Of a stretch of DNA of 64,000 nt, positions 4,575 through 20,819 are shown piece by piece. Origin of the DNA: Mumia sp. Pv4-285 (GTDB lineage: Bacteria > Actinomycetota > Actinomycetes > Propionibacteriales > Nocardioidaceae); NCBI RefSeq assembly GCF_041320275.1, contig NZ_CP162023.1:868001-932000 (forward strand). The letters run 5' to 3'. Numbering within the stretch: position 1 is the stretch's first letter; each line of letters starts with the position of its first letter. The position numbers and the translations under genes were made by a program. The notes beneath the pieces were generated by a model. That model saw only the letters and a program-made list of their open reading frames with translations. It did no database searches and was not told the DNA's origin.

Positions 4575-5294
4575 TCAGGCCTCCTCGGTCGTGCTGGCGG
4601 GGCGGGGGCGCGTCGTACGCTGCTCGATCGGGTACTCGCGGGGGCTCGACGCAATGACGCGGTCGACGTAGATCCCAGGGGTGTGCACGTCGTCGGGATC
4701 GAGATAGGTGTCGAGCACGTGCTGGGCATCGACGACGGTCGTGCGTCCGCAGGTCGCGACGATCGGGTTGAAGTTGCGCGCCGTCAGCCGGTAGCGGAGG
4801 TTGCCCTCGGGGTCGACGGTGTGCGCGTGGACGAGCGCGAGGTCGGCGACGATGCCGCGCTCGAGCACGCACGTCTCGCCGTCGAACTCCTCGGTCGGCT
4901 TGCCCTCGGCGACCGGCGTGCCGACGCCGGTCCGGGTGTAGAACGCGGCGATCCCCGCGCCCCCGGCGCGCATGCGCTCAGCGAGCGTGCCCTGCGGCGT
5001 GAACTCGACCTCGAGCGCCCCGTCGAGGAACTGCCTCGCGAACAGCGCGTTCTCGCCGACGTACGACGCGATGACCTTGGTGACCTGGCTGCTCTCGAGG
5101 AGGATCCCGAGGCCCTTGCCGTCCACGCCCATGTTGTTGGACACCACGGTGAGGTCCTGGACACCCGAGTCGCGGACGGCCTCGATCAGGTCGAACGGGT
5201 TGCCCGACAGGCCGAACCCTCCGACAGCGATCGTCATGCCGTCGTGCAACATGCCGTCGAGCGCCGCCTGAGCGTCGTCGCGGAGCTTCCTCAT
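4575..5294 (-). CDS. 3-oxoacid CoA-transferase, subunit A
   Basis: 239 residues, family I CoA-transferase alpha subunit, with the CoA-binding signature [14 protein letters not shown] near residues 25-38, NNMG and the [13 protein letters not shown] stretch. An ATG six codons further upstream is in frame, but the ATG at 5294 has GGAGG 7 nt before it and gives the normal N-terminus MRKLRDD. It acts with subunit B, encoded 2 bases downstream. The 153-base gap to the divergent IclR gene holds a candidate operator (5359-5380), so the pair is probably regulated by that protein. The A/B pair is of the ScoAB/PcaIJ type; the acid substrate is not determined. Confidence 0.9.
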
Positions 5295-5358
5295 CGATGT
5301 GCCTCCGTCCATCCAGTGGTCACGTCGAGTGAACGCGATGCGGGTCTTCTCGTCAATG

Positions 5359-5380
5359 ATCCCGGACTTGTCCCTGGGAT
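5359..5380. promoter_or_regulatory. Dyad symmetry between the CoA-transferase and IclR genes, candidate operator
   Basis: Inner arms GGAC and GTCC around TT, flanked by outer arms ATCCC and GGGAT. It is the only clear dyad in the divergent intergenic region and sits between the two start codons, where IclR proteins usually bind. Inference only. Confidence 0.4.
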
Positions 5381-5435
5381 TCCTCTCGGTCGGCGGTCAA
5401 CCTCCGCCTCCAGCGTCCACTCAGCGGATACCTCG

Positions 5436-5441
5436 TACGAT
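5436..5441 (+). promoter_or_regulatory. -10-like hexamer TACGAT for the IclR gene
   Basis: TACGAT ends 6 nt before the ATG at 5448, and no Shine-Dalgarno sequence precedes that ATG, so a leaderless transcript is predicted. Confidence 0.4.
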
Positions 5442-5447
5442 CGTGGC

Positions 5448-6203
5448 ATGGCGCAGTCCTCCCAGCTCGTCGGTCGCGTCGGCCGGATCCTGCGCGCCGT
5501 TGCTGCCGGGTCGAGCGACGGCGTGACGACGAGCGACCTCGCGCGCGACACCGAGCTGCCCCGTGCGACGACGCACCGCCTCCTGGAGTCGCTCGCCGCG
5601 GAAGGCATGCTGGACCGCGACGGCGCCACCGGCCGCTGGTTCCTCGGCCCTGAGCTCTACGTGCTCGGCACCCGAGCCGCGTCGCGGTTCGACGTGACGC
5701 GCGAGGCGCGGGGCAGCGTACGCCGGCTGGCCGAGGCGACCGGTGAGAGCGCGTTCTTCTCGGTCCGCCGCGGCGACGAGACAGTGGTCCTGCTGCGCGA
5801 GGACGGGGCGTTCCCCATCCGCTCCTTCGTGCTGTACGAGGGAGCGCGGTTCCCGCTCGGGGTGGTATCCGCAGGTCTCGTGGTGCTGTCGTACCTGAGC
5901 GACGACGACATCGACGACTACCTGAGGCGGGCGGACCTCACGACCCAGTGGGGCGCCGCCCACGAGCCGGCGTCCGTGCGGGAACGGATCGCCCGGACGC
6001 GCGAGGCGGGGTGGGCGGTCAACCCCGGTCTGGTCGTCGAGGGCAGCTGGGGGATGGCCGCCGCGGTGTTCGACACGGCGGGCGCACCGCGCGGGGCGCT
6101 CACGCTCACCGGGATCGAGTCGCGGTTCCGTCCCGAGCGACAGGCCGAGCTGGGGCGGCTGCTGCTGGACGAGGCGCACCGGCTCTCGCGCGCCCTGGGT
6201 TGA
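5448..6203 (+). CDS. IclR-family transcriptional regulator
   Basis: 251 residues. An N-terminal winged helix-turn-helix (about 1-70, with TTSDLARDTELPRATTHRLL as recognition region) is followed by the IclR effector-binding domain (about 80-251), normal for the family. The ATG at 5448 starts at the first helix; the much longer open frame upstream is antisense to the CoA-transferase gene. IclR proteins usually sense an aromatic or small carboxylic acid and control the neighbouring catabolic operon; here the divergent CoA-transferase pair is the obvious target. It ends 3 bases before the convergent HD-domain gene. Confidence 0.9.
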   Translation: MAQSSQLVGRVGRILRAVAAGSSDGVTTSDLARDTELPRATTHRLLESLAAEGMLDRDGATGRWFLGPELYVLGTRAASRFDVTREARGSVRRLAEATGESAFFSVRRGDETVVLLREDGAFPIRSFVLYEGARFPLGVVSAGLVVLSYLSDDDIDDYLRRADLTTQWGAAHEPASVRERIARTREAGWAVNPGLVVEGSWGMAAAVFDTAGAPRGALTLTGIESRFRPERQAELGRLLLDEAHRLSRALG

Positions 6204-12022: not shown

Positions 12023-12733
12023 TCAGGCCGGTTCGGTGCGGACGAGGACCCCGATCTTGTCGATGCGGTGCTCGGGGTTGTCGAACTCGTCGGCCCAGAA
12101 GTTCCCCCGCGCATGGTCCTCGGGCGTGGCGCAGGTCGAGAGCGTGATGTACGCGCGGTCGGGCGTGCGACCGGGCTGACCCGGGACGGCAGCGCGCTGC
12201 TCGCTGAGCGAGCGGGCCGACCGGAACGAGGTCGACCGCGTACGCACGATCTCGTACGTCCACCGCGTCCCCCCGGCGCTCACGTGCACGCGATCGCCGC
12301 GCCGCAGCTCGGGCAGGTCGAGGAAGGCCCGTGTCGACGAGAGCCGGTGCGCGGTGACCTGGTAGTTGCCGACACCGCCGGGTCCGGAACCTCCACGAGG
12401 TCCGTGCGGACTGGCGGCCCGCCCGCGGTTCTGGATCCGTGTGCCGGCAGCGTCGTCGGTCCTGCCGCGGTACGCGACGACACGCAGGTCCTCGACCCCG
12501 AGGGACGGGATGTCGAGGAGCGCGTCGCGATGAGGGGCGGGATGCACCGCGACGGGCTCAGGTGACCGGGTGGTCACCGCGGTGGTCGGTGCCGGTGTCG
12601 GCGACGTGGGGGCAGGACGTGACGAGCTGCTCTCGGCGGGTGGCTCGGGCGCACGTTCGACAGGCGGGCCGCCACACCCTGCGACCAGCAAGGCGATGGC
12701 GCCCGCCACACCGAGAGCCGCGCGACGGACCAT
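12023..12733 (-). CDS. Sortase-domain lipoprotein (class E/F-like)
   Basis: 236 residues. A signal peptide ends in the lipobox VAGC with C20, followed by a proline/serine/threonine-rich linker (about 22-66) and a sortase domain. The catalytic histidine is H129 in NYQVTAHR, the catalytic cysteine C201 in TLSTC, and an arginine follows at about R223. Sortases cleave sorting signals and attach proteins to the wall or to each other; this one would be anchored outside the membrane by lipid, as in some actinobacterial sortases. No LPXTG-type substrate gene is nearby. The frame runs on upstream through the antisense of the cyclodeaminase gene, but the ATG at 12733 begins the signal peptide. Confidence 0.85.
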   Translation of the reverse strand: MVRRAALGVAGAIALLVAGCGGPPVERAPEPPAESSSSRPAPTSPTPAPTTAVTTRSPEPVAVHPAPHRDALLDIPSLGVEDLRVVAYRGRTDDAAGTRIQNRGRAASPHGPRGGSGPGGVGNYQVTAHRLSSTRAFLDLPELRRGDRVHVSAGGTRWTYEIVRTRSTSFRSARSLSEQRAAVPGQPGRTPDRAYITLSTCATPEDHARGNFWADEFDNPEHRIDKIGVLVRTEPA

Positions 12734-12739
12734 CTCTCG

Positions 12740-12745
12740 ACGGTA
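12740..12745 (-). promoter_or_regulatory. -10-like hexamer TACCGT for the sortase gene
   Basis: On the minus strand TACCGT ends 6 nt before the ATG at 12733, predicting a leaderless transcript. Confidence 0.4.
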
Positions 12746-12764
12746 CCCGCGCGGGTGTGGCGAC

Positions 12765-13811
12765 CTAGTGCGCGACGAGCGTCTCAGCCCGCACGGGAGC
12801 GACCATCGCGAAGAGGTTCTTGGGGTCGCTCGGCTCGGCGACGAGGTCGAGCGACGCCTCGTACGAGGTGCCGCGCACGGCGTCGCGGACGAAACGCAGC
12901 GCCATGAAGTCCTCGATCGCGAACCCGACGGAGTCGAAGACGGTGATCTCGTCGATCGACGCGCGTCCGGGTGCGTCGCCGGCGACCACGCGCCACAGCT
13001 CGGTGACCTCGAACTCCGGACCGAACGCCTGGATCTCGCCCTCGACACGGGTCTGCTCGGGGTACTCGACGAAGACCGTGGCCCGCTCGAGGATCGCCTG
13101 GTCGAGCTCGGTCTTGCCGGGGCAGTCGCCGCCGATCGCGTTGATGTGGACGCCGGGAACGACGTCGACGTCACGCAGGACGGTGGCGTTCGTCTTGTCG
13201 GCGGTGCAGGTCGTGATCACGTCCGCTCCGAGGACGGCGTCCGCGGCGCTGGTGGCGACGGTGATCTCGAATCCGAGCGGCTCGAGGTTGCGGACCAGCT
13301 TGGCCATCGCCGCCGGGTCCGTGTCCCACACGTGCAGCCTGCTGATGCCCAGAGCGGCGCGGAACCCGAGCGCCTGGAACTCGGCCTGCGAGCCGGTGCC
13401 GATCATTGCCATCGTCGTCGCGTCCGGACGGGCGAGCCAGCGTGCGGCCATCGCCGAGGTGGCCGCCGTACGGAGGGCGGTGAGGAGCGTCATCTCGGCG
13501 ACGAACGTCGGGTAGCCGTTGTGGACCTGTGCGAGGACTCCGAACGCCGTCACCGTCTGGAAGCCCCGCAGCGGGTTCCTGGGGTGCCCGTTCACGTACT
13601 TGAAGCCGTACTCGTCGCCGTCGCTCGTGGGCATCAGCTCCATCACGCCCTCGACGGAGTGAACGGCGTGGCGGGGCGACTTGTCGAACACCGGCCAGCG
13701 GCGGAAGTCGTCCTCCAGGGCGGTGACCATCTCGCCGATGATGCGCTCGGCACCCTGCTCGGAGATCCAGCGGCTCATGTGGGGGACGTCGACGAACGAG
13801 ACGGTGGTCAT
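12765..13811 (-). CDS. Ornithine cyclodeaminase family protein
   Basis: 348 residues of the ornithine cyclodeaminase/mu-crystallin family. K71 in GFKYVNGHP, the NAD site MIGTGSQAE (136-144) and D229 in NAIGGDCPGKTELD match the residues used for ornithine binding and catalysis in the Pseudomonas enzyme, so true ornithine to proline plus ammonia activity is likely rather than a mere paralogue. The ATG at 13811 has GGAGG 7 nt upstream and overlaps the stop of the preceding arginine-deiminase-superfamily gene (ATGA); the eight extra upstream residues in frame are not needed. The pair probably works in sequence on arginine. Confidence 0.85.
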   Translation of the reverse strand: MTTVSFVDVPHMSRWISEQGAERIIGEMVTALEDDFRRWPVFDKSPRHAVHSVEGVMELMPTSDGDEYGFKYVNGHPRNPLRGFQTVTAFGVLAQVHNGYPTFVAEMTLLTALRTAATSAMAARWLARPDATTMAMIGTGSQAEFQALGFRAALGISRLHVWDTDPAAMAKLVRNLEPLGFEITVATSAADAVLGADVITTCTADKTNATVLRDVDVVPGVHINAIGGDCPGKTELDQAILERATVFVEYPEQTRVEGEIQAFGPEFEVTELWRVVAGDAPGRASIDEITVFDSVGFAIEDFMALRFVRDAVRGTSYEASLDLVAEPSDPKNLFAMVAPVRAETLVAH

Positions 13812-14683
13812 GCTCGTACCTCCAGAGTGCAGCACTTGACGCTTCCGCCGCCCTTGAGCAGCTCGCTCAGGTCGACGCCGACAGGGTTGAAGCCGCGCTC
13901 GCGCAGCCGCTCGTGCAGGCGGACCGCCTTGTCCGTGAGGACCACGTTGTGGCCGTCCGAGACGGCGTTCAGGCCGAGGACCTCGGCGTCGGCGTCGGTC
14001 GCGACGATCGCGTCCGGGAACAGCTGGCGCAGGACCGCGTTGCTCTGCGCGCTGAACGCCGGCGGGTAGTACGCGATCGTGCGGTCGTCGAGGGCCGCGA
14101 GCGCGGTGTCGAGGTGGTAGAAGCGCGGGTCGACCAGCTGGAGCGAGATGACCGGAGCGCCGAAGAACTCCCGAGCCTCGTGGTGCGCAGCGACCGACGT
14201 CCGGAAGCCCGTCCCGGCGAGGATGATCCGGCCGACGACGAGGAAGTCGCCCTCACCCTCGTTCGTGGACTCGGCCTGGATCGTCGGACGGAAGCCGGCG
14301 TCCTCGAACCACGCCTGGTACGCCGCGCCCTCGGGCTGGCGCTCGGCGAAGGTGAACCGGGCCGCCATCGCCCTGCCCTCGAAGACCACGCCACCGTTCG
14401 CGGCGTAGACCATGTCGGGGAGGCCTTCGACCGGGTGGATGAGATCGACCTGGTGACCAAGCACCTCGTACGTCGAGCGCAGCAGCTCCCACTGCGCGAT
14501 CGCGAGAGCCGTGTCGACCGGCTTGCTCGGGTCCATCCACGGGTTGATCGCGTACGTGACGTCGAAGTGCTCGGGGCGGCACATGAGGAAGCGGCGAGGC
14601 GACGCGTCCCGCTGTGTCGTCCGTGGCGCCGTACGCTCGTGGGTCGCCGAATCGGGCGCGAGAGCGCCCGTGGTGATCGTCAT
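13808..14683 (-). CDS. Arginine-dihydrolase/dimethylargininase-like amidinotransferase-fold enzyme
   Basis: 291 residues of the guanidino-modifying superfamily (arginine deiminase, DDAH, ArgZ/AgrE). Catalytic histidine H190 in FYHLDT and cysteine C284 in GGGSVKC are present. The N-terminal LMCRPEHFDVTYAINPWM (34-50) and PDMVYAANGG (89-98) closely resemble cyanobacterial ArgZ/AgrE arginine dihydrolase, and the asparagine of the AAN motif (N96) is at the position tied to dihydrolase rather than deiminase activity, as far as I can align by eye. It would release ornithine, CO2 and ammonia from arginine; dimethylargininase is the common automatic label. Good GGAGG before the ATG. Translationally coupled to the cyclodeaminase. 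Confidence 0.75.
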   Translation of the reverse strand: MTITTGALAPDSATHERTAPRTTQRDASPRRFLMCRPEHFDVTYAINPWMDPSKPVDTALAIAQWELLRSTYEVLGHQVDLIHPVEGLPDMVYAANGGVVFEGRAMAARFTFAERQPEGAAYQAWFEDAGFRPTIQAESTNEGEGDFLVVGRIILAGTGFRTSVAAHHEAREFFGAPVISLQLVDPRFYHLDTALAALDDRTIAYYPPAFSAQSNAVLRQLFPDAIVATDADAEVLGLNAVSDGHNVVLTDKAVRLHERLRERGFNPVGVDLSELLKGGGSVKCCTLEVRA

Positions 14684-14724
14684 CCATACCTCCGTGCCGT
14701 GCGGTGACTCGAACGTATGTCGAC

Positions 14725-14755
14725 AAGCGTTGCGCGCCGAGGGCGAATCGTTGCG
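14725..14755. repeat. Two direct repeats AA(G/T)CGTTGCG, 21 bp apart
   Basis: AAGCGTTGCG at 14725-14734 and AATCGTTGCG at 14746-14755 match at 9 of 10 positions and are offset by two helical turns. They lie 42-72 bases upstream of the arginine-dihydrolase-like start codon, in the region where a promoter is expected, so they are a candidate tandem regulator site. Confidence 0.4.
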
Positions 14756-14803
14756 AAGATCGACTCAAGAACTGCGATGTGTTGTGAGGCAGGCGCGGAA
14801 ACT

Positions 14804-15493
14804 TCAGTCGTCTGGAGGCGAGTCAGCCAGGGCGCCGAGGGTCGGCAACCGCTCGCGCAGCGATATCCAGCCGTGGCGGATGTGCGACCGCATCGCGGAC
14901 TCGGCCCAGTCGGCGTCGCCGGCTCGCAGGGCCTCGACGATTTCGTGGTGCTGGGCGAGGCTGCGTGCCAGGGCCGTCGGCGTGTAGTGCGCGAAGGTGC
15001 TCTGGACGAGGGGGACCTGCACGATCGATGCGAGCAGGGAGCGCAGTCGATCGCTGCCCGATGCGATGACGATCGCGGTGTGGAAGCGGTTGTTGAGCGC
15101 GGTCAGCGCCTCGGGGTCCCGTCGGGGGTCGGCGGCCCGGTCCATCGCCGTAGCCAGCTCGTCCAGCGCGTCGAGGTCGAGCGCCTCCGACATCGCGGCG
15201 AGGCGAGCACCGAAGGGCTCGAGCAGTCCGCGGATCGTGAAGATCTCCTCGAGGTCGTCGACGCTCCAGCTCAGGACCTGAACCCCGCGGTGCCGCTCGT
15301 GGCGGACAAGCCCGTCGGCAGCGAGCCGACGCAACGCCTCGCGGACGGGGGTGCGGCTGACGCCGATCTCGCTCGCCAGGTCCTCCTCGCGCAGCCACTC
15401 CCCGCCGAACCGGCGCCCGGAGAGGATCTGCGCACGGATCTCCTCGTACACCCCTTCGGCGGTGATCCCGCCGTCCGGGGCCCTCGTCGTCAT
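14804..15493 (-). CDS. GntR-family regulator with FCD ligand domain
   Basis: 229 residues from the ATG at 15493. An N-terminal winged helix (LREEDLASEIGVSRTPVREAL) is followed by an all-helical FCD domain; the metal-binding FCD residues are recognisable as NNRFH and the later HHEIV histidines. Two upstream in-frame ATGs exist (15511, 15532), but a TACTCT hexamer 8 nt before 15493 favours the shorter form. It is divergent from the CoA-transferase/hydantoinase operon, and TTGTATACAA-like palindromes lie in between, so it most likely represses that operon and itself until a pathway acid binds. Confidence 0.85.
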   Translation of the reverse strand: MTTRAPDGGITAEGVYEEIRAQILSGRRFGGEWLREEDLASEIGVSRTPVREALRRLAADGLVRHERHRGVQVLSWSVDDLEEIFTIRGLLEPFGARLAAMSEALDLDALDELATAMDRAADPRRDPEALTALNNRFHTAIVIASGSDRLRSLLASIVQVPLVQSTFAHYTPTALARSLAQHHEIVEALRAGDADWAESAMRSHIRHGWISLRERLPTLGALADSPPDD

Positions 15494-15526
15494 GGTCTCG
15501 GAGAGTAGCATCCGCGAACCTGGCAA

Positions 15527-15536
15527 TTGCATACAA
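15527..15536. promoter_or_regulatory. GntR-type palindrome TTGCATACAA
   Basis: One mismatch from the perfect palindrome TTGTATACAA, which fits the TNGTNNNACNA pattern of FadR/FCD-type GntR proteins. It sits near the expected -35 region of the GntR gene and pairs with a second copy at 15602. Confidence 0.55.
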
Positions 15537-15601
15537 TCTTCGCGCTCGGCCCTTGACCCGCATCCGGCTGGAGCCTAGGTTCGCAGAAATTCGTCTCGCG
15601 T

Positions 15602-15611
15602 TTGTATACGA
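15602..15611. promoter_or_regulatory. GntR-type palindrome TTGTATACGA
   Basis: One mismatch from TTGTATACAA, centred 75 bp (about seven helical turns) from the copy at 15527 and ending 17 bases before the GTG start of the CoA-transferase. Occupancy here would cover the promoter of the operon. Confidence 0.55.
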
Positions 15612-15628
15612 GAGCGGGGTCCTGATAC

Positions 15629-16831
15629 GTGGCTGCTCCTTCCGCACCGCTGTCCGACGTCCGGGTCGTCGAGATGGGGCAGCTCCTTGCGGGCCCGTTC
15701 TGCGGCCAGCTCCTCGGCGACTTCGGAGCGGACGTCATCAAGGTCGAGGATCCGCGGCACGGAGACCCCATGCGGCAGTGGGGTCGCGAGAAGCCGTACG
15801 GGAAGTCCCTGTGGTGGCCGGTCGTCGCGCGCAACAAGCGCTCGGTGACGGCCGACCTGCGCGACGCACGCGGGCAGGACGTCGTCCGCGACCTGCTCAC
15901 GCACGCCGACGTGCTCGTCGAGAACTTCCGCCCCGGGACGCTCGAACGCTGGGGCCTCTCGCCCGAGTCGCTCTGGGAGATCAACCCCGGGCTGGTCGTC
16001 ACCCGCGTCACCGGCTTCGGTCAGAGCGGTCCGTACGCCGCCCGCGCCGGTTACGGCTCGATCGGCGAGGCGATGGGAGGCATCCGCTACGTGACCGGTG
16101 ACCCGGACAAGCCGCCCGCACGCACCGGCGTCTCGCTCGGCGACTCCCTCGCAGCGACCTTCGCGTGCGTCGGGACGCTGGTGGCGCTGCACTCCCGCGA
16201 GCGCACCGGACGCGGCCAGGTCGTCGACGCCGCCATCTACGAGTCGGTGCTGGCGCTGATGGAGTCGATGGTCCCGGAGTGGCAGATCGCGGGCTACCAG
16301 CGGGAGCGCACCGGCACCGTCCTCCCGAACGTGTCGCCGAGCAACGTCTACCCGACGCGCGACGGCGAGACGATCCTGATCGCCGCCAACCAGGACACCG
16401 TCTTCCGACGGCTGGCCGACGTGATGGGGCAGCCCGACCTGGCCGAGGACGACCGGTACGCGACCCACGGCGCGCGCGGTGCCTCGATGGACGAGCTCGA
16501 CGCCCTGATCGCGCGGTGGACCGCACAGATCGACGCCGAGGACCTGCTGGAGCGGCTGAACGACGGGGGAGTGCCTGCCGGCCGGATCTATCGCGCCCGC
16601 GACATGCTCGACGACCCGCACTTCGCCGCCCGCGAGGCGATCGTCCGTCTCCAGCATCCCGACCTCGGCGAGTTCGCGGTGCAGAACGTGGCACCCAAGC
16701 TCTCGGAGACGCCCGGGTCCGTGCGCCACCTCGGGCCGGAGCTCGGCGAGCACAACGACGACGTCTACCGAGACCTGCTCGGGATGGACGATGACCAGCT
16801 CACCACGCTGCGCGAGGCAGGCGTGATCTGA
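15629..16831 (+). CDS. CaiB/BaiF (class III) CoA-transferase
   Basis: 400 residues, typical for the formyl-CoA:oxalate CoA-transferase family. The N-terminal VVEMGQLLAGPFCGQLLGDFGADVIKVE block, VENFRPGTLERWGL (97-110) and the catalytic aspartate D172 in SLGDS are all present. It moves CoA between organic acids and probably activates the acid produced or consumed by the hydantoinase-type pathway in the same operon. GTG start without a clear ribosome-binding site; the GntR palindrome is immediately upstream. First gene of a five-gene operon ending at 22332. Confidence 0.85.
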   Translation: MAAPSAPLSDVRVVEMGQLLAGPFCGQLLGDFGADVIKVEDPRHGDPMRQWGREKPYGKSLWWPVVARNKRSVTADLRDARGQDVVRDLLTHADVLVENFRPGTLERWGLSPESLWEINPGLVVTRVTGFGQSGPYAARAGYGSIGEAMGGIRYVTGDPDKPPARTGVSLGDSLAATFACVGTLVALHSRERTGRGQVVDAAIYESVLALMESMVPEWQIAGYQRERTGTVLPNVSPSNVYPTRDGETILIAANQDTVFRRLADVMGQPDLAEDDRYATHGARGASMDELDALIARWTAQIDAEDLLERLNDGGVPAGRIYRARDMLDDPHFAAREAIVRLQHPDLGEFAVQNVAPKLSETPGSVRHLGPELGEHNDDVYRDLLGMDDDQLTTLREAGVI

Positions 16832-16856
16832 GAACCGTGTGACCTAGGAGGACACC

Positions 16857-18944
16857 ATGACCTATCGGCTCGGTGTGGACGTCGGAGGCACGTTCACCGA
16901 CATCCTGCTCGTCGACGAGAGCTCGGGCGAGACCTATCGGGCGAAGACGCCGTCGACGCCGCACGACCAGTCGATCGGCGTCCTCCGGGGCATCATGCAG
17001 GCCTGCGCGGCCGCCGACATCGGGCTCGAGGAGGTCGGTGACGTCATGCACGGCACCACGGTCGCGACGAACGCGATCCTCGAGGGCAAAGGGGCGCGCG
17101 TCGGGCTGGTGACGACCCGCGGGTTCCGGCAGGTGCTGCAGATCGCGCGGTCGTTCGTCCCCGGCGGTCTCGCCGGCTGGATCATCTGGCCCAAGCCCGA
17201 GCCGCTCGCCGCGCTGGAGGACACCGTCGAGGTCGGCGGACGCATCGCCAGCGACGGCTCGGTCGTCGAGGACCTCGACGAGGACGACGTCCGCGCCGCG
17301 CTCGAGAAGCTGGCCGCGCAGGGGGTCGAGGCGCTGAGCATCAGCCTCATCAACTCCTATGCCAACCCTGAGCACGAGCGCCGGGTGGCCAAGGTGGCCA
17401 CGGAGGTGATGGGCGACCTCACGGTGTCGGTGTCCTCGTCGGTCCTGCCCGAGCTGCGCGAGTACGAGCGCACCCTCACCACGGTCGCCAACGCGTACGT
17501 GCAGCCGCGCGTCGCCCGCTACATCGCCAACCTCGGTGAGCAGCTCGCCGAGTCAGGCGTCGGTGGCAGGCTCTACATCCTGCGCAGCGACGGAGGGCTC
17601 GCCTCGGCGGCGACCGCAGCCGACAACCCCGTCTCGCTGCTGCTGTCGGGACCGGCCGGTGGGGTGAGCGGTGCGGCGTGGGTGGCCGAGCAGGCGGGGT
17701 TCGCCGACTTCCTCACCTTCGACATGGGGGGCACCTCGACCGATGTCGCGCTCGTCCAGAACCGGATTCCTCGGATCGGGCGTGAGACGAAGGTCGGTGA
17801 CCTGACGGTGCGTGCGACCTCGGTCGACGTGCGGACCGTCGGCGCCGGCGGCGGGTCGATCGCGCACGTGCCACCGCTGACGCAGGCGCTGAGGGTAGGC
17901 CCGCAGTCGGCGGGGGCGGTGCCCGGACCTGCTGCGTACGGGCAGGGCGGCGCGGAGCCGACGGTCACGGACGCCAACGTCGTCCTCGGCTACCTCCCGA
18001 CCTCGTTGGCCGGCGGCGAGGTGACCCTGGACCGGGACGCCGCGAGGGCCGCGGTGCAGACCATCGTGGAGGCGACCGACCTCGGCAGCGTCGAGCAGGC
18101 CGCCGAGGGGATCGTCGACATCGTCAACGAGAACATGCTGGGCGCGCTGCGGCTCGTCTCCGTGCAGCAGGGGTTCGACCCGCGCGACTTCGCGCTGGTC
18201 GCGTTCGGTGGCGCCGGCCCGCTCCACGCGAACGCGCTCGGCCGGCTGACCGGAGCATGGCCGGTCATCATCCCGCCGTCGCCCGGCGTGCTCTGTGCGT
18301 ACGGCGACGCGACCACGAGCATGCGCGACGAGGCGGTCCGTACGCTGATGCGCCCGTTCTCCAGCCTCGACGACGACGCGCTGCGCGGCCAGCTCGTCGA
18401 GCTCGCCGACGACGCGAGGGCCTCGCTGATCCGAGACGGTCTGAGCGAGTCCGACCTGACCGTCACCTACGCGGCAGACCTCCGGTACCACGGGCAGGGC
18501 TTCGAGATCCCGGTGACGGTCGACGCCGCGACGTTCGACGGGAGCGGAGGAGGCCTGGCCTCGTTGCGCGCAGCGTTCGACGCGGAGCACGAACGGCTCT
18601 TCTCCTTCCTGCTCGACAACGAGCACGAGATCGTCACCGTGCGGGCGACGGCGAGCGGTCCCCGTCCTGACGTCGCAGCCCCGGTCCTCGCCGCCGGTGG
18701 CGAGGATGCCTCCGGTGCTCGAGTCGGAACGGAGAGCATCTGGGTCGACGGCGCGGCGGTCGACGCCGGCGTCTACCAGCGTGACGAGCTGCTGGCCGGC
18801 AACGTCGTGGCGGGCCCGGCGGTGATCACCGAGATGGACTCCACGACTCTCGTTCTCCCCGGGCACGCCGCCACGGTGCACCCGAGCGGGAGCCTTCTCA
18901 TCCGACCCATCGACCACAGCGCCGGCGACGGCGCGGAGGGCTGA
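16857..18944 (+). CDS. hyuA: Hydantoinase/oxoprolinase subunit A (HyuA)
   Basis: 695 residues. The N-terminus has the ATP-binding actin-like-fold motif DVGGTFTD (8-15), then HGTTVATNAILEGKGA and a second phosphate motif FDMGGTSTDVAL; the GGAGPLHA motif follows near 450. These are the Hydant_A_N and Hydantoinase_A domains. With HyuB it forms an ATP-dependent amidohydrolase that opens 5-membered cyclic amides such as 5-oxoproline, N-methylhydantoin or hydantoin (caprolactamase and acetophenone carboxylase are relatives). AGGAGG precedes the ATG; HyuB follows after 3 bases. Confidence 0.9.
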   Translation: MTYRLGVDVGGTFTDILLVDESSGETYRAKTPSTPHDQSIGVLRGIMQACAAADIGLEEVGDVMHGTTVATNAILEGKGARVGLVTTRGFRQVLQIARSFVPGGLAGWIIWPKPEPLAALEDTVEVGGRIASDGSVVEDLDEDDVRAALEKLAAQGVEALSISLINSYANPEHERRVAKVATEVMGDLTVSVSSSVLPELREYERTLTTVANAYVQPRVARYIANLGEQLAESGVGGRLYILRSDGGLASAATAADNPVSLLLSGPAGGVSGAAWVAEQAGFADFLTFDMGGTSTDVALVQNRIPRIGRETKVGDLTVRATSVDVRTVGAGGGSIAHVPPLTQALRVGPQSAGAVPGPAAYGQGGAEPTVTDANVVLGYLPTSLAGGEVTLDRDAARAAVQTIVEATDLGSVEQAAEGIVDIVNENMLGALRLVSVQQGFDPRDFALVAFGGAGPLHANALGRLTGAWPVIIPPSPGVLCAYGDATTSMRDEAVRTLMRPFSSLDDDALRGQLVELADDARASLIRDGLSESDLTVTYAADLRYHGQGFEIPVTVDAATFDGSGGGLASLRAAFDAEHERLFSFLLDNEHEIVTVRATASGPRPDVAAPVLAAGGEDASGARVGTESIWVDGAAVDAGVYQRDELLAGNVVAGPAVITEMDSTTLVLPGHAATVHPSGSLLIRPIDHSAGDGAEG

Positions 18945-18947
18945 GAC

Positions 18948-20819
18948 ATGGCACAGATCATCCAGACCGCGACCGAGCCCCTCCCGACCGTCGACGTCGA
19001 CGTGGTCACGCTCGACCTCGTCGAGAACGCACTGCGCAACGCTCGCTACGAGATGGACGAGGTCCTGTTCCGAACGGCGCTGTCACCGGGGATCCGCGAG
19101 CAGCACGACGAGTTCCCGCTGATCGGCGACCCGGAGGGCAAGATGGTCGTCGGCCAGTTCGGTCTCTCGATCCCGGACTTCCTCGAGAACTTCGACGGCA
19201 CCATCCAGGAGGGCGACATCCTCCTCACCTCCGACCCGTACTCGTGCGGCGCCGCGATCAGCCACGCCAACGACTGGCTCGTCGTGATGCCCATCTACTT
19301 CGAAGGGCGCGTCGTCGGGTGGGCCTCGATGTTCGGGCACATGTCGGACGTCGGCGGCAAGACGCCGGCCTCCATGCCGACCGACGCCCGCACCATCTAC
19401 GAGGAGGGCGTCGTCATCCCGCCCTTCAAGCTCTACAAGGCAGGCGTGCTCGACGAGGACGCGCTGCGCATCATCCTCAACCAGGTACGCAAGCCCGACT
19501 GGAACCGCGCGGACCTCAACGGGTTGGTCGCAGCCTGCAGCACCGCGTCACGCCGCGTGCAGGAGCTCTGCGCCCGGTTCGGTGCCGACACCTACACCTC
19601 CGCGCTCGACGCCCTGCTCGACCGCAACTACCGGGCGATGAAGGCGCTGCTCCAGATGGTGTTCAAGGACGGCGAGACGCTCTCGTTCACCGACTACATC
19701 TGTGACGACGGCGTCGGCTACGGGCCGTACGAGCTCAAGCTCAGCCTCACCCGCAACGGCGACAAGGTCCTGCTCGACTTCACGGGCAGCAGCCCGCAGG
19801 CGAAGGGGCCGATCAACTACTACATCAACGAGAACCTCGTCCGGATGTTCTTCGGGATCTACATGATCACGGTCGCGGACCCGCAGATCCTCTGGAACGA
19901 CGGCTTCTATCCCCTGGTCGACGTCGAGATCCCCGAGGACTCGTTCTGGAAGCCGAAGTTCCCGGCAGCGCTCAATGCCCGCAACCACGGGATCGGGCGC
20001 GTGTTCGACCTCTTCGGAGGCCTCCTCGGCCAGACCAACCCCGACCTGCTGAACGCCGCCGGCTTCTCGTCGTCGCCGCACTTCATGTACTCCGGGAACT
20101 ACAGCGAGGGCGAACGCAAGGGGGAGTGGTTCCAGCTGTACTCGATCGGCTTCGGTGGCATCCCAGGCCGTCCGATCGGAGACGGCCCGGACGGGCACTC
20201 GCTGTGGCCGTCCTTCGTCAACATCCCGTGCGAGTACCTCGAGTCGTACTACCCCTTGCGGGTCGAGGCGTGGGAGACCGTCTCGGACACGGGCGGCGCA
20301 GGGCTTCACCGGGGCGGCAACGCGGTCGACGTCGCGTACCGGTTCCTCGAGCCTGGCACGATCGCCATCCACGACGACCGGTGGCTCACCTATCCATGGG
20401 GCGTCAACGGCGGCGAACCCGGAGCCCGTGGCCGCAAGTGGATCCTCCGGGCCGACGGCACGACCGAGATCCTGCCGAGCAAGATCCACGACGTCGAGGT
20501 CGTGCCCGGCGACGTGCTCCACTTCGTCACGTGGGGCGGCGGCGGATGGGGCGACCCGCTCGCGCGTGACCCCGAGCTCGTCGCCCTCGAGGTACGGCGG
20601 GGGCTGGTGACCGCCGACGGCGCACGGCGCTACGGCGTGGTGTGCGACGAGTCGGGCTCCGTCGACGCCGACGCGACGGCGACGCTGCGGGTGGAGATGG
20701 ACGCCGGTCGGCCGGACGTCCTGCCGACGTTCAACTCCGGCCCGCCGCTGGAGGAGATCCTCGCACGGTGCGAGGAGGAGACCGGGCTACCCGCCCCCAA
20801 GCCACCGGTGGCCCTGTGA
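18948..20819 (+). CDS. hyuB: Hydantoinase/oxoprolinase subunit B (HyuB)
   Basis: 623 residues, Hydantoinase_B family. Recognisable are the EMDEVLFRTALSPGIREQHD start, the SDPYSCGAAISHANDW segment, GHMSDVGGKTPAS with metal-ligand candidates, and the glycine-rich end GAGLHRGGN and TWGGGGWGDPL. It is the partner of HyuA in the ATP-dependent ring-opening enzyme. The stop codon overlaps the GTG of the next gene (GTGA), so an amidase is translated directly after the ring-opening enzyme, suggesting that it acts on the ring-opened product. Confidence 0.9.
   Translation: MAQIIQTATEPLPTVDVDVVTLDLVENALRNARYEMDEVLFRTALSPGIREQHDEFPLIGDPEGKMVVGQFGLSIPDFLENFDGTIQEGDILLTSDPYSCGAAISHANDWLVVMPIYFEGRVVGWASMFGHMSDVGGKTPASMPTDARTIYEEGVVIPPFKLYKAGVLDEDALRIILNQVRKPDWNRADLNGLVAACSTASRRVQELCARFGADTYTSALDALLDRNYRAMKALLQMVFKDGETLSFTDYICDDGVGYGPYELKLSLTRNGDKVLLDFTGSSPQAKGPINYYINENLVRMFFGIYMITVADPQILWNDGFYPLVDVEIPEDSFWKPKFPAALNARNHGIGRVFDLFGGLLGQTNPDLLNAAGFSSSPHFMYSGNYSEGERKGEWFQLYSIGFGGIPGRPIGDGPDGHSLWPSFVNIPCEYLESYYPLRVEAWETVSDTGGAGLHRGGNAVDVAYRFLEPGTIAIHDDRWLTYPWGVNGGEPGARGRKWILRADGTTEILPSKIHDVEVVPGDVLHFVTWGGGGWGDPLARDPELVALEVRRGLVTADGARRYGVVCDESGSVDADATATLRVEMDAGRPDVLPTFNSGPPLEEILARCEEETGLPAPKPPVAL

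What the first reader, a model, noticed from the sequence alone, without database searches (positions are those of the whole stretch)
12765..14683. Split arginine dihydrolase and ornithine cyclodeaminase: a possible two-gene AgrE-like arginine-to-proline route
The first protein matches cyanobacterial ArgZ/AgrE in its LMCxPxHFDVxYxINPWM and PDMVxxAN motifs, with catalytic H190 and C284; the second has the residues of true ornithine cyclodeaminase. In Anabaena AgrE these two activities are one protein; here they are overlapping genes. Automatic annotation would call the first dimethylargininase and miss the pathway.
Basis: partly seen in the sequence, partly recalled or inferred. Interest (0 to 1): 0.6.

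Follow-up and report, generated by a model that had tools for sequence, protein, structure and literature searches.

The report
Two-gene arginine-to-proline breakdown route
Two neighbouring bacterial genes most likely turn arginine into ornithine and then into proline, and the first belongs to a large family, probably including a tuberculosis protein of unsolved role, that databases seem to name after the wrong reaction.

Summary
A 291-aa guanidino enzyme (13808-14683, -) and an ornithine cyclodeaminase (12765-13811, -) share an ATGA overlap. NCBIfam names the first 'dimethylargininase' (NF045659, 468 bits, cut-off 300). Its fold and active-site signature instead match the cyanobacterial arginine dihydrolases ArgZ/AgrE: model Z 38.6 and 1.4 A to ArgZ, against 30.2 and 2.2 A to DDAH. 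It has an Asn+Asp pair, as do ArgZ, AgrE and E. coli AstB; DDAHs have Asp+Lys/Gln, deiminases Asp+Asp, CtlX Asn+Asn. Relatives often sit beside ornithine users: ornithine aminotransferase (16 of 25 places), ornithine cyclodeaminase, or a KtzI-like hydroxylase. In one congener the order is dihydrolase-OCD-PutA. Correction: this is no split AgrE; the cyclodeaminase is mu-crystallin type and does not match AgrE/ArgZ. Main consequence: Rv2323c of M. tuberculosis, needed for arginine-to-proline but called DDAH (PMC4569260), is probably also an arginine dihydrolase. No activity was measured. Arginine deiminase in 21 of 22 genomes keeps a 'deiminase plus citrulline hydrolase' rival alive.

The parts
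13808..14683 (-). Guanidino-group enzyme, predicted L-arginine dihydrolase (arginine to ornithine + CO2 + 2 NH3); 291 aa; N47, N96, E142, D146, H190, D192, C284
12765..13811 (-). Ornithine cyclodeaminase, mu-crystallin family, 348 aa (listed by the ORF finder from GTG 13835); R47, E58, K71, R114, D229 match P. putida OCD R45, E56, K69, R112, D228
13808..13811 (-). ATGA overlap: stop of the dihydrolase gene and start of the cyclodeaminase gene (translational coupling inferred)
13819..13823 (-). GGAGG Shine-Dalgarno-like site 7 nt before the cyclodeaminase ATG
14689..14693 (-). GGAGG Shine-Dalgarno-like site 5 nt before the dihydrolase ATG
14804..15532 (-). GntR/FCD-type regulator upstream on the same strand; possible regulator of the pair, or of the divergent 15629-20819 cluster
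   Evidence: kept beside OCD without the dihydrolase in G351 (L163); no tblastn match at 1e-15 in the fetched stretches of G315, G332, G343, G358

Best explanation
The pair encodes arginine catabolism to proline. The first enzyme removes the whole guanidino carbon of L-arginine in two hydrolytic cycles on C284 (ornithine + CO2 + 2 NH3). The second, NAD-dependent, cyclises ornithine to proline and releases the third NH3. Proline then enters PutA, which in this genome lies elsewhere, and gives glutamate. Shown here: sequence, predicted fold, catalytic residues, signature pair, gene order and its recurrence. Inferred: substrate, product, coupling and physiological role.
For: (1) The family profile scores ArgZ 283 and AgrE 273 bits but P. 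aeruginosa DDAH 65, human DDAH1 59 and ADI 29. The AF2 model (pLDDT 88.6) aligns to ArgZ at Z 38.6, 1.4 A, 261 residues, against DDAH 30.2, 2.2 A. (2) Signature: 134 of 135 family sequences (the other a fragment) carry N47/N96/E142/D146/H190/D192/C284, as ArgZ and AgrE do. Nine DDAH-type sequences have Asp at 96 and Lys (8) or Gln (1) at 192; 2 ADIs have D/D, one CtlX N/N, E. coli AstB N/D. PDB 6juz is titled ArgZ(N71S) bound to a reaction intermediate. (3) With ADI rows in the tree, the family, ArgZ/AgrE and two further N+D groups stand together against DDAH and ADI at 99/97; holding the family with DDAH is rejected at p-AU 0.03. (4) Neighbours use ornithine: OAT within 200 bp at 16 of 25 places and directly downstream in 26 of 80 named loci; intact OCD pairs in 7 of 149 family genomes plus 2 named Isoptericola; KtzI-like hydroxylase about 100 bp downstream in Streptacidiphilus carbonis. 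(5) Dihydrolase-OCD-PutA in G343; OCD-PutA in G377; dihydrolase-OCD-CtlX in G301. (6) The own genome has no OAT at 1e-90, no arginase at 1e-30, and one PutA. (7) The Rv2323c mutant makes no proline from arginine (PMC4569260, abstract and Discussion).
Against: No biochemistry. NF052232 (arginine dihydrolase) gives 207 bits, below its cut-off of 450, while NF045659 (dimethylargininase) is passed. ADI is present in 21 of 22 family-bearing genomes against 49 of 274 others, and within 3 kb of the gene in G038 and G074. The own genome has two ADIs. 51 of 80 named relatives have neither OAT nor OCD directly downstream. Grouping of the family with ADI is not rejected (p-AU 0.227). Gene counts are not corrected for shared ancestry.
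Confidence: 0.8

Rival explanations
1. The first enzyme hydrolyses citrulline only (like CtlX); an arginine deiminase elsewhere makes the citrulline, and the cyclodeaminase takes the ornithine.
For: ADI in 21 of 22 family genomes, two in this genome; ADI within 3 kb in G038 and G074; Asn at position 96 as in CtlX.
Against: Asp192 is kept, where CtlX has Asn (rule of Price 2022, passage read). G301 carries a separate CtlX in the same operon. G257 (1 contig, listed 100% complete) has the gene beside OAT but no ADI match at 1e-60.
Confidence: 0.1
2. It is a dimethylargininase, as NCBIfam names it.
For: NF045659 passed at 468 bits; same superfamily fold (Z 30.2 to P. aeruginosa DDAH).
Against: The DDAH residues Asp at 96 and Lys/Gln at 192 are absent. 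A separate NF045660 DDAH, over its cut-off, is carried by two genomes that also hold the NF045659 gene (G193, G182). Holding the family with DDAH in the tree is rejected, though only at p-AU 0.03. The recognisable neighbours use ornithine.
Confidence: 0.05
3. It is an arginine deiminase that stops at citrulline.
For: HLD kept as in ADI; grouping with ADI not rejected by the tree (p-AU 0.227).
Against: Asn96 replaces the ADI Asp; 291 aa against 402-418 aa for the own ADIs; closest fold is ArgZ, best ADI Z 27.2; neighbouring OCD/OAT use ornithine, not citrulline.
Confidence: 0.04

Closest known systems
AgrE (Anabaena Alr4995) / ArgZ (Synechocystis Sll1336)
   Same: N-terminal dihydrolase fold, catalytic residues, N+D signature; AgrE makes proline from arginine via ornithine (PMC8262935, whole text)
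   Different: 37-40% identity; two separate genes; the cyclodeaminase is from the mu-crystallin family, without a match to the AgrE/ArgZ chains
Rv2323c of M. tuberculosis and its cluster with rocD and rocE
   Same: The model's name, DiMArgaseDdahMtb, points to the Mtb enzyme; Mycolicibacterium L104 has Lrp/AsnC regulator, gene, rocD-type OAT, amino acid permease, as the cluster described in PMC4569260
   Different: Here rocD is replaced by OCD. Rv2323c is annotated DDAH and its reaction was left unsolved. Rv2323c itself was not fetched, so its residues are not tested here
Ornithine cyclodeaminase of Pseudomonas putida (1u7h)
   Same: 374 bits; all five substrate-site residues conserved
   Different: Here it is paired with a guanidino dihydrolase gene
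CtlX-ocd pairs (Price 2022, PMC9007349, passages read)
   Same: A guanidino-superfamily hydrolase beside ocd, thought to feed it ornithine
   Different: CtlX is a putative citrullinase with N+N signature; here N+D, predicted substrate arginine
AstB, N-succinylarginine dihydrolase of E. coli
   Same: N+D signature; two-step dihydrolase chemistry (recalled)
   Different: Acts on succinylarginine; distant (17% identity in the structural alignment)

Membership tests
Arginine dihydrolase (ArgZ / AgrE N-terminal domain) | Guanidino-enzyme fold closest to ArgZ | tested here: met
   Z 38.6, 1.4 A over 261 residues, on a predicted model
Arginine dihydrolase (ArgZ / AgrE N-terminal domain) | Cys/His/Glu/Asp set plus the two Asn (ArgZ N22 and N71; numbering and role recalled, 6juz title) | tested here: met
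   window identical to ArgZ and AgrE in all seven columns
Arginine dihydrolase (ArgZ / AgrE N-terminal domain) | NCBIfam NF052232 cut-off of 450 bits | tested here: not met
   206.9 bits; so it is said to work like ArgZ, not to be a member of that curated family
Arginine dihydrolase (ArgZ / AgrE N-terminal domain) | Sister group of ArgZ in the tree | tested here: inconclusive
   p-AU 0.516; order within the N+D group unresolved
Arginine dihydrolase (ArgZ / AgrE N-terminal domain) | Arginine to ornithine activity | not testable with these tools
   -
AgrE-type bifunctional enzyme | Second half homologous to the AgrE/ArgZ C-terminal cyclodeaminase | tested here: not met
   By sequence: no match to AgrE/ArgZ chains or NF052231 at E 0.001; PF02423 instead. 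No fold comparison was made
Dimethylargininase (DDAH) | NF045659 cut-off | tested here: met
   468 bits, cut-off 300
Dimethylargininase (DDAH) | DDAH residues Asp (FVED) and Lys/Gln (HLK/HLQ) | tested here: not met
   Asn and Asp instead
Citrulline hydrolase CtlX | FPNN and HTN (both Asn) | tested here: not met
   AAN and HLD
Arginine deiminase | FTRD and HLD (both Asp) | tested here: not met
   AAN and HLD
Ornithine cyclodeaminase, mu-crystallin type | NF005762 cut-off and substrate-site residues | tested here: met
   522 bits, cut-off 350; five of five residues
Ornithine cyclodeaminase, mu-crystallin type | Ornithine to proline activity | not testable with these tools
   -

The most novel reading that the evidence does not exclude
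The whole NF045659 family of Actinomycetota, now annotated dimethylargininase and by its name including Rv2323c, is an unrecognised arginine dihydrolase that stands in for arginase and feeds ornithine to interchangeable partners (OAT, mu-crystallin OCD, ornithine hydroxylase). The arginine-to-proline module of cyanobacterial AgrE was thus assembled a second time from a different cyclodeaminase. A two-residue code (Asn/Asp) would predict deiminase, DDAH, dihydrolase or citrullinase across the superfamily.
Probability: 0.72. Interest if true: 0.68.

Novelty: new variant of a known kind. Interest (0 to 1): 0.6.

Why it matters
It corrects the probable function of a family named 'dimethylargininase' by default. 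It offers a concrete answer to a question left open in 2015: how M. tuberculosis, without an arginase homologue and with a broken rocD, makes ornithine and proline from arginine through Rv2323c (PMC4569260). A 2024 review still treats Rv2323c as a DDAH that acts on host methylarginine (PMC11008464, passages), which this would put in doubt. It also adds a second, independently assembled arginine-ornithine-proline module.

Tried and rejected
Split or fissioned AgrE: rejected by sequence, because the cyclodeaminase is of another family. DDAH: rejected on residues and, more weakly, on the tree (p-AU 0.03). A close sister relation to ArgZ: not shown. In the tree without ADI DDAH and the family are each one group, but that tree by itself cannot say which is nearer ArgZ: the branch joining the family with DDAH had 29/0 support. 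This is why ADI rows were added. Arginase complementarity as proof: weak. Arginase over cut-off occurs in 0 of 22 family genomes against 40 of 274 others (p 0.054); at E 1e-30 it is 0 of 22 against 67 of 274 (p 0.006), both uncorrected for ancestry. Promoters and terminators: none found by the consensus scan at 12600-15700. Gene calling was swamped by spurious high-GC ORFs and replaced by a codon-position filter, itself imperfect, so gene calls near loci are approximate. 51 of 80 named relatives lacked OAT/OCD directly downstream; the immediate neighbours of 44 of them, read by eye, gave no partner common to most (a TetR-looking gene upstream in several Streptomyces, an Lrp-type gene upstream in Nocardia). 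The ArgZ and AgrE structure papers are not held, so the role of Asn71 is recalled, supported only by the PDB title. Ten literature searches showed, among the papers they listed, none whose title, abstract start or passages seen call Rv2323c or an actinobacterial relative an arginine dihydrolase; the listings were capped and subscription journals are mostly absent.

Rows dropped: 21 identical sequences of 162 before the residue count. L131-L134, L136 and L153 were not in the set after that step, so copies from the window's own genus other than the window's are missing from the trees. far90_L185 was left out of all trees; CtlX, ADI and far90_L184 out of the second; CtlX and far90_L184 out of the third, which also kept only 16 of the 32 family rows for speed. 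Some of the 135 residue-count sequences are the same gene fetched twice with different ends (window and L001). Of the 8 DDAH-like rows only 4 (L179, L181, L192, L196) were checked against NCBIfam, all over the NF045660 cut-off.

Full report
What is there. On the - strand the window holds a GntR/FCD regulator (15532-14804), a 291-aa guanidino enzyme (14683-13808) and an ornithine cyclodeaminase. The ORF finder starts the cyclodeaminase at GTG 13835, but the ATG at 13811 has GGAGG 7 nt upstream and overlaps the preceding stop as ATGA, so 12765-13811 is the likely gene; the first gene also has GGAGG before its ATG.

What automatic annotation says. NCBIfam places the first protein in NF045659 'dimethylargininase' (468 bits, cut-off 300), with only 207 bits to 'arginine dihydrolase' NF052232 (cut-off 450) and 82 bits to another dimethylargininase model, NF045660 (cut-off 340). 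The second protein is NF005762 ornithine cyclodeaminase (522 bits, cut-off 350).

What the first protein resembles. Its best solved relatives are ArgZ (186 bits) and AgrE (162 bits); DDAH1 gives 25. A profile of 29 family members scores ArgZ 283, AgrE 273, P. aeruginosa DDAH 65, human DDAH1 59 and arginine deiminase 29 bits. An AlphaFold2 model (mean pLDDT 88.6, pTM 0.86) aligns to ArgZ with Z 38.6, rmsd 1.4 A over 261 residues. P. aeruginosa DDAH gives Z 30.2 and 2.2 A, AstB 29.0, human DDAH1 28.6, arginine deiminase 27.2.

A two-residue signature. Price et al. 2022 (PMC9007349, passages read) note that arginine deiminases and related guanidino enzymes have two substrate-binding aspartates (FTRD, HLD), which the putative citrullinase CtlX replaces by asparagines (FPNN, HTN). 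I aligned these columns. Own arginine deiminases: D/D (2 of 2). DDAH type: D/K in 8 and D/Q in 1 of 9. One CtlX: N/N. ArgZ, AgrE and E. coli N-succinylarginine dihydrolase AstB: N/D. The window protein: N/D. Of 135 NF045659-type sequences, 134 are N/D with the full set N47, N96, E142, D146, H190, D192, C284; the other is a fragment. Alignment of AstB with the rest is distant, but its motifs (WVANA, FHND) are plain. The rule makes chemical sense, as a dihydrolase must bind first a guanidinium and then a ureido-like intermediate (inference). PDB 6juz, titled ArgZ(N71S) covalently bound to a reaction intermediate, fits a need for that Asn in completing turnover. That Asn71 is essential in AgrE is recalled; the paper was not held.

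Tree. With two arginine deiminases in the tree, this family, ArgZ/AgrE and two further actinobacterial N+D groups stand together against DDAH and ADI with support 99/97. Holding the family with DDAH instead is rejected (p-AU 0.03); holding it with ADI is not (p-AU 0.227). An earlier 57-row tree that also held CtlX gave 87/90 for the same grouping plus CtlX, with long branches. The order inside is unresolved: a sister relation to ArgZ is neither shown nor rejected (p-AU 0.516). The window protein is 40% identical to ArgZ, 37% to AgrE, 29% to a DDAH-like protein of G193 and 22% to P. aeruginosa DDAH. That DDAH-like gene and its counterpart in G182 pass NF045660 (384 and 391 bits), and both genomes also carry an NF045659 gene: two different genes under one product name.

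Second protein. It is PF02423/NF005762, 374 bits to P. putida ornithine cyclodeaminase. The residues named there, R45, E56, K69, R112 and D228 (PMC3497308, passages), are all present (R47, E58, K71, R114, D229). It gives no match at E 0.001 to the ArgZ or AgrE chains, which contain the second domain, nor to the bifunctional model NF052231. So by sequence this is not AgrE cut in two; the same route appears to have been put together from a different cyclodeaminase. I made no fold comparison of the two cyclodeaminases.

Gene neighbours over a phylum draw. Among 296 genomes, 22 carry the NF045659 gene over cut-off, at 25 places. Ornithine aminotransferase lies within 200 bp at 16 of 25 places, and 19 of the 22 genomes have one over cut-off, against 25 of 274 others. 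The own genome has none at 1e-90 and instead has the cyclodeaminase, which at 1e-70 is found in only 2 of 296 genomes. In the second-tier group (226-248 bits, 7 places) ornithine aminotransferase is adjacent at 4 of 7 (G162, G247, G258, G279; coordinates).

Gene neighbours in the window's family. Of 149 genomes, 39 have the gene over cut-off and 19 have the cyclodeaminase. Intact adjacent pairs occur in 7 (G000, G315, G332, G343, G358, G301, G354), and one more is broken (G437). Six of the seven lack an ornithine aminotransferase match at 1e-110. Among the 39, 11 have only the cyclodeaminase, 22 only the aminotransferase, 4 both and 2 neither (Fisher p 4.8e-5, not corrected for ancestry). The two enzymes behave as alternative partners. 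In G343 the order is dihydrolase-OCD-PutA; in G332 dihydrolase-OCD, a LysR-type gene, then PutA; in G377 OCD-PutA without the dihydrolase; in G301 a divergent Lrp/AsnC gene, then dihydrolase-OCD-CtlX (CtlX 379 bits, cut-off 334). PutA here means Pro_dh plus aldehyde dehydrogenase domains (PF01619, PF00171; G332, G343 and own genome); the NCBIfam PutA model is matched at 359-377 bits, under its cut-off of 747, in G343, G348 and G377. The own genome's PutA lies elsewhere and is 66% identical to that of G343 over 1152 aligned positions.

Named relatives. Of 80 named loci, kept for closeness to the window, 26 have ornithine aminotransferase and 2 (both Isoptericola) the cyclodeaminase directly downstream; 51 have neither and 1 is at a contig end. 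In Streptacidiphilus carbonis a KtzI-like hydroxylase (542 bits to KtzI; its ornithine specificity is recalled) follows about 100 bp downstream. Hydroxylases of this type lie within 8 kb in 5 of 80 (only the one in S. carbonis was compared with KtzI), and in L036 one sits with a formyltransferase and an NRPS. So the partners that are recognisable use ornithine, but most named relatives stand without one.

Against the reading. Arginine deiminase is found in 21 of 22 family genomes but 49 of 274 others, and lies within 3 kb of the gene in G038 and G074. The own genome has two, one beside an amino acid permease gene. A citrulline-only hydrolase fed by a deiminase is therefore a serious rival. Against it stand the conserved HLD aspartate, a separate CtlX in the G301 operon, and G257, which has the gene with ornithine aminotransferase and no deiminase match. 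Absence of arginase in all 22 is consistent but statistically weak (p 0.054 at cut-off).

Link to prior work. In M. tuberculosis the cluster Rv2319c-rocE-rocD-Rv2323c is induced by arginine. Loss of Rv2323c abolishes proline formation from arginine; rocD is broken, no arginase homologue exists, and the authors left the ornithine-forming step open while noting the DDAH annotation (PMC4569260: abstract, passages and Discussion). NF045659 carries an Mtb name, and Mycolicibacterium L104 shows Lrp/AsnC regulator, gene, rocD-type aminotransferase and amino acid permease in a row. A 2024 review treats Rv2323c as a DDAH (PMC11008464, passages). The dihydrolase reading would explain these data; I did not fetch Rv2323c itself. 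Ten literature searches showed me no paper that makes this link, in capped listings of an incomplete library.

Verdict. The 'split AgrE' framing is wrong in origin, though right in what the pair would do. I rate it a new variant of a known kind: an actinobacterial arginine dihydrolase subfamily, probably misnamed, with interchangeable ornithine-consuming partners.

Noticed in passing
window 15629-20819 (+) and 14804-15532 (-): CoA-transferase III plus hydantoinase/oxoprolinase-type hyuA/hyuB (caprolactamase-like, below cut-offs), divergent from the GntR gene. The same block sits beside OCD without the dihydrolase in congener G351 (L163).
   Followed up: partly
L167 (G437) 5181-5988: The dihydrolase copy beside OCD is in two pieces with an in-frame stop, while an intact second copy lies elsewhere (L168).
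   Followed up: partly
L186 (G150): Lrp/AsnC regulator, dihydrolase gene and amino acid permease with no OAT match between them and none in the genome at 1e-90: a rocD-less layout, recalling the broken rocD of Mtb.
   Followed up: no
L036, L041, L187, L064, L084: Family members beside a formyltransferase (L036, L041, L187), an NRPS (L036) or hydroxylases of the ornithine/lysine N-monooxygenase type (L036, L064, L084): the enzyme may also supply ornithine for hydroxamate siderophores.
   Followed up: partly
L176, L177, L178 (G356, G395, G354): A second subfamily (170-204 bits to NF045659, motif PDMVYAMN, N+D signature) is common in the window's family; its neighbours were not studied.
   Followed up: no
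L202 7714-8748 (own genome): A PAD_porph-type guanidino enzyme (PF04371, 348 bits; agmatine deiminases belong to this family, recalled) near PutA.
   Followed up: partly
L107: Streptomyces sp. ERV7 carries two copies of the gene about 5 kb apart.
   Followed up: no
window 12023-12739 (-): A sortase-domain protein (PF04203, 46 bits) follows OCD; its relatives lie near the pair in congeners L159, L160, L161 and L164, in L160 and L161 beyond PutA.
   Followed up: partly
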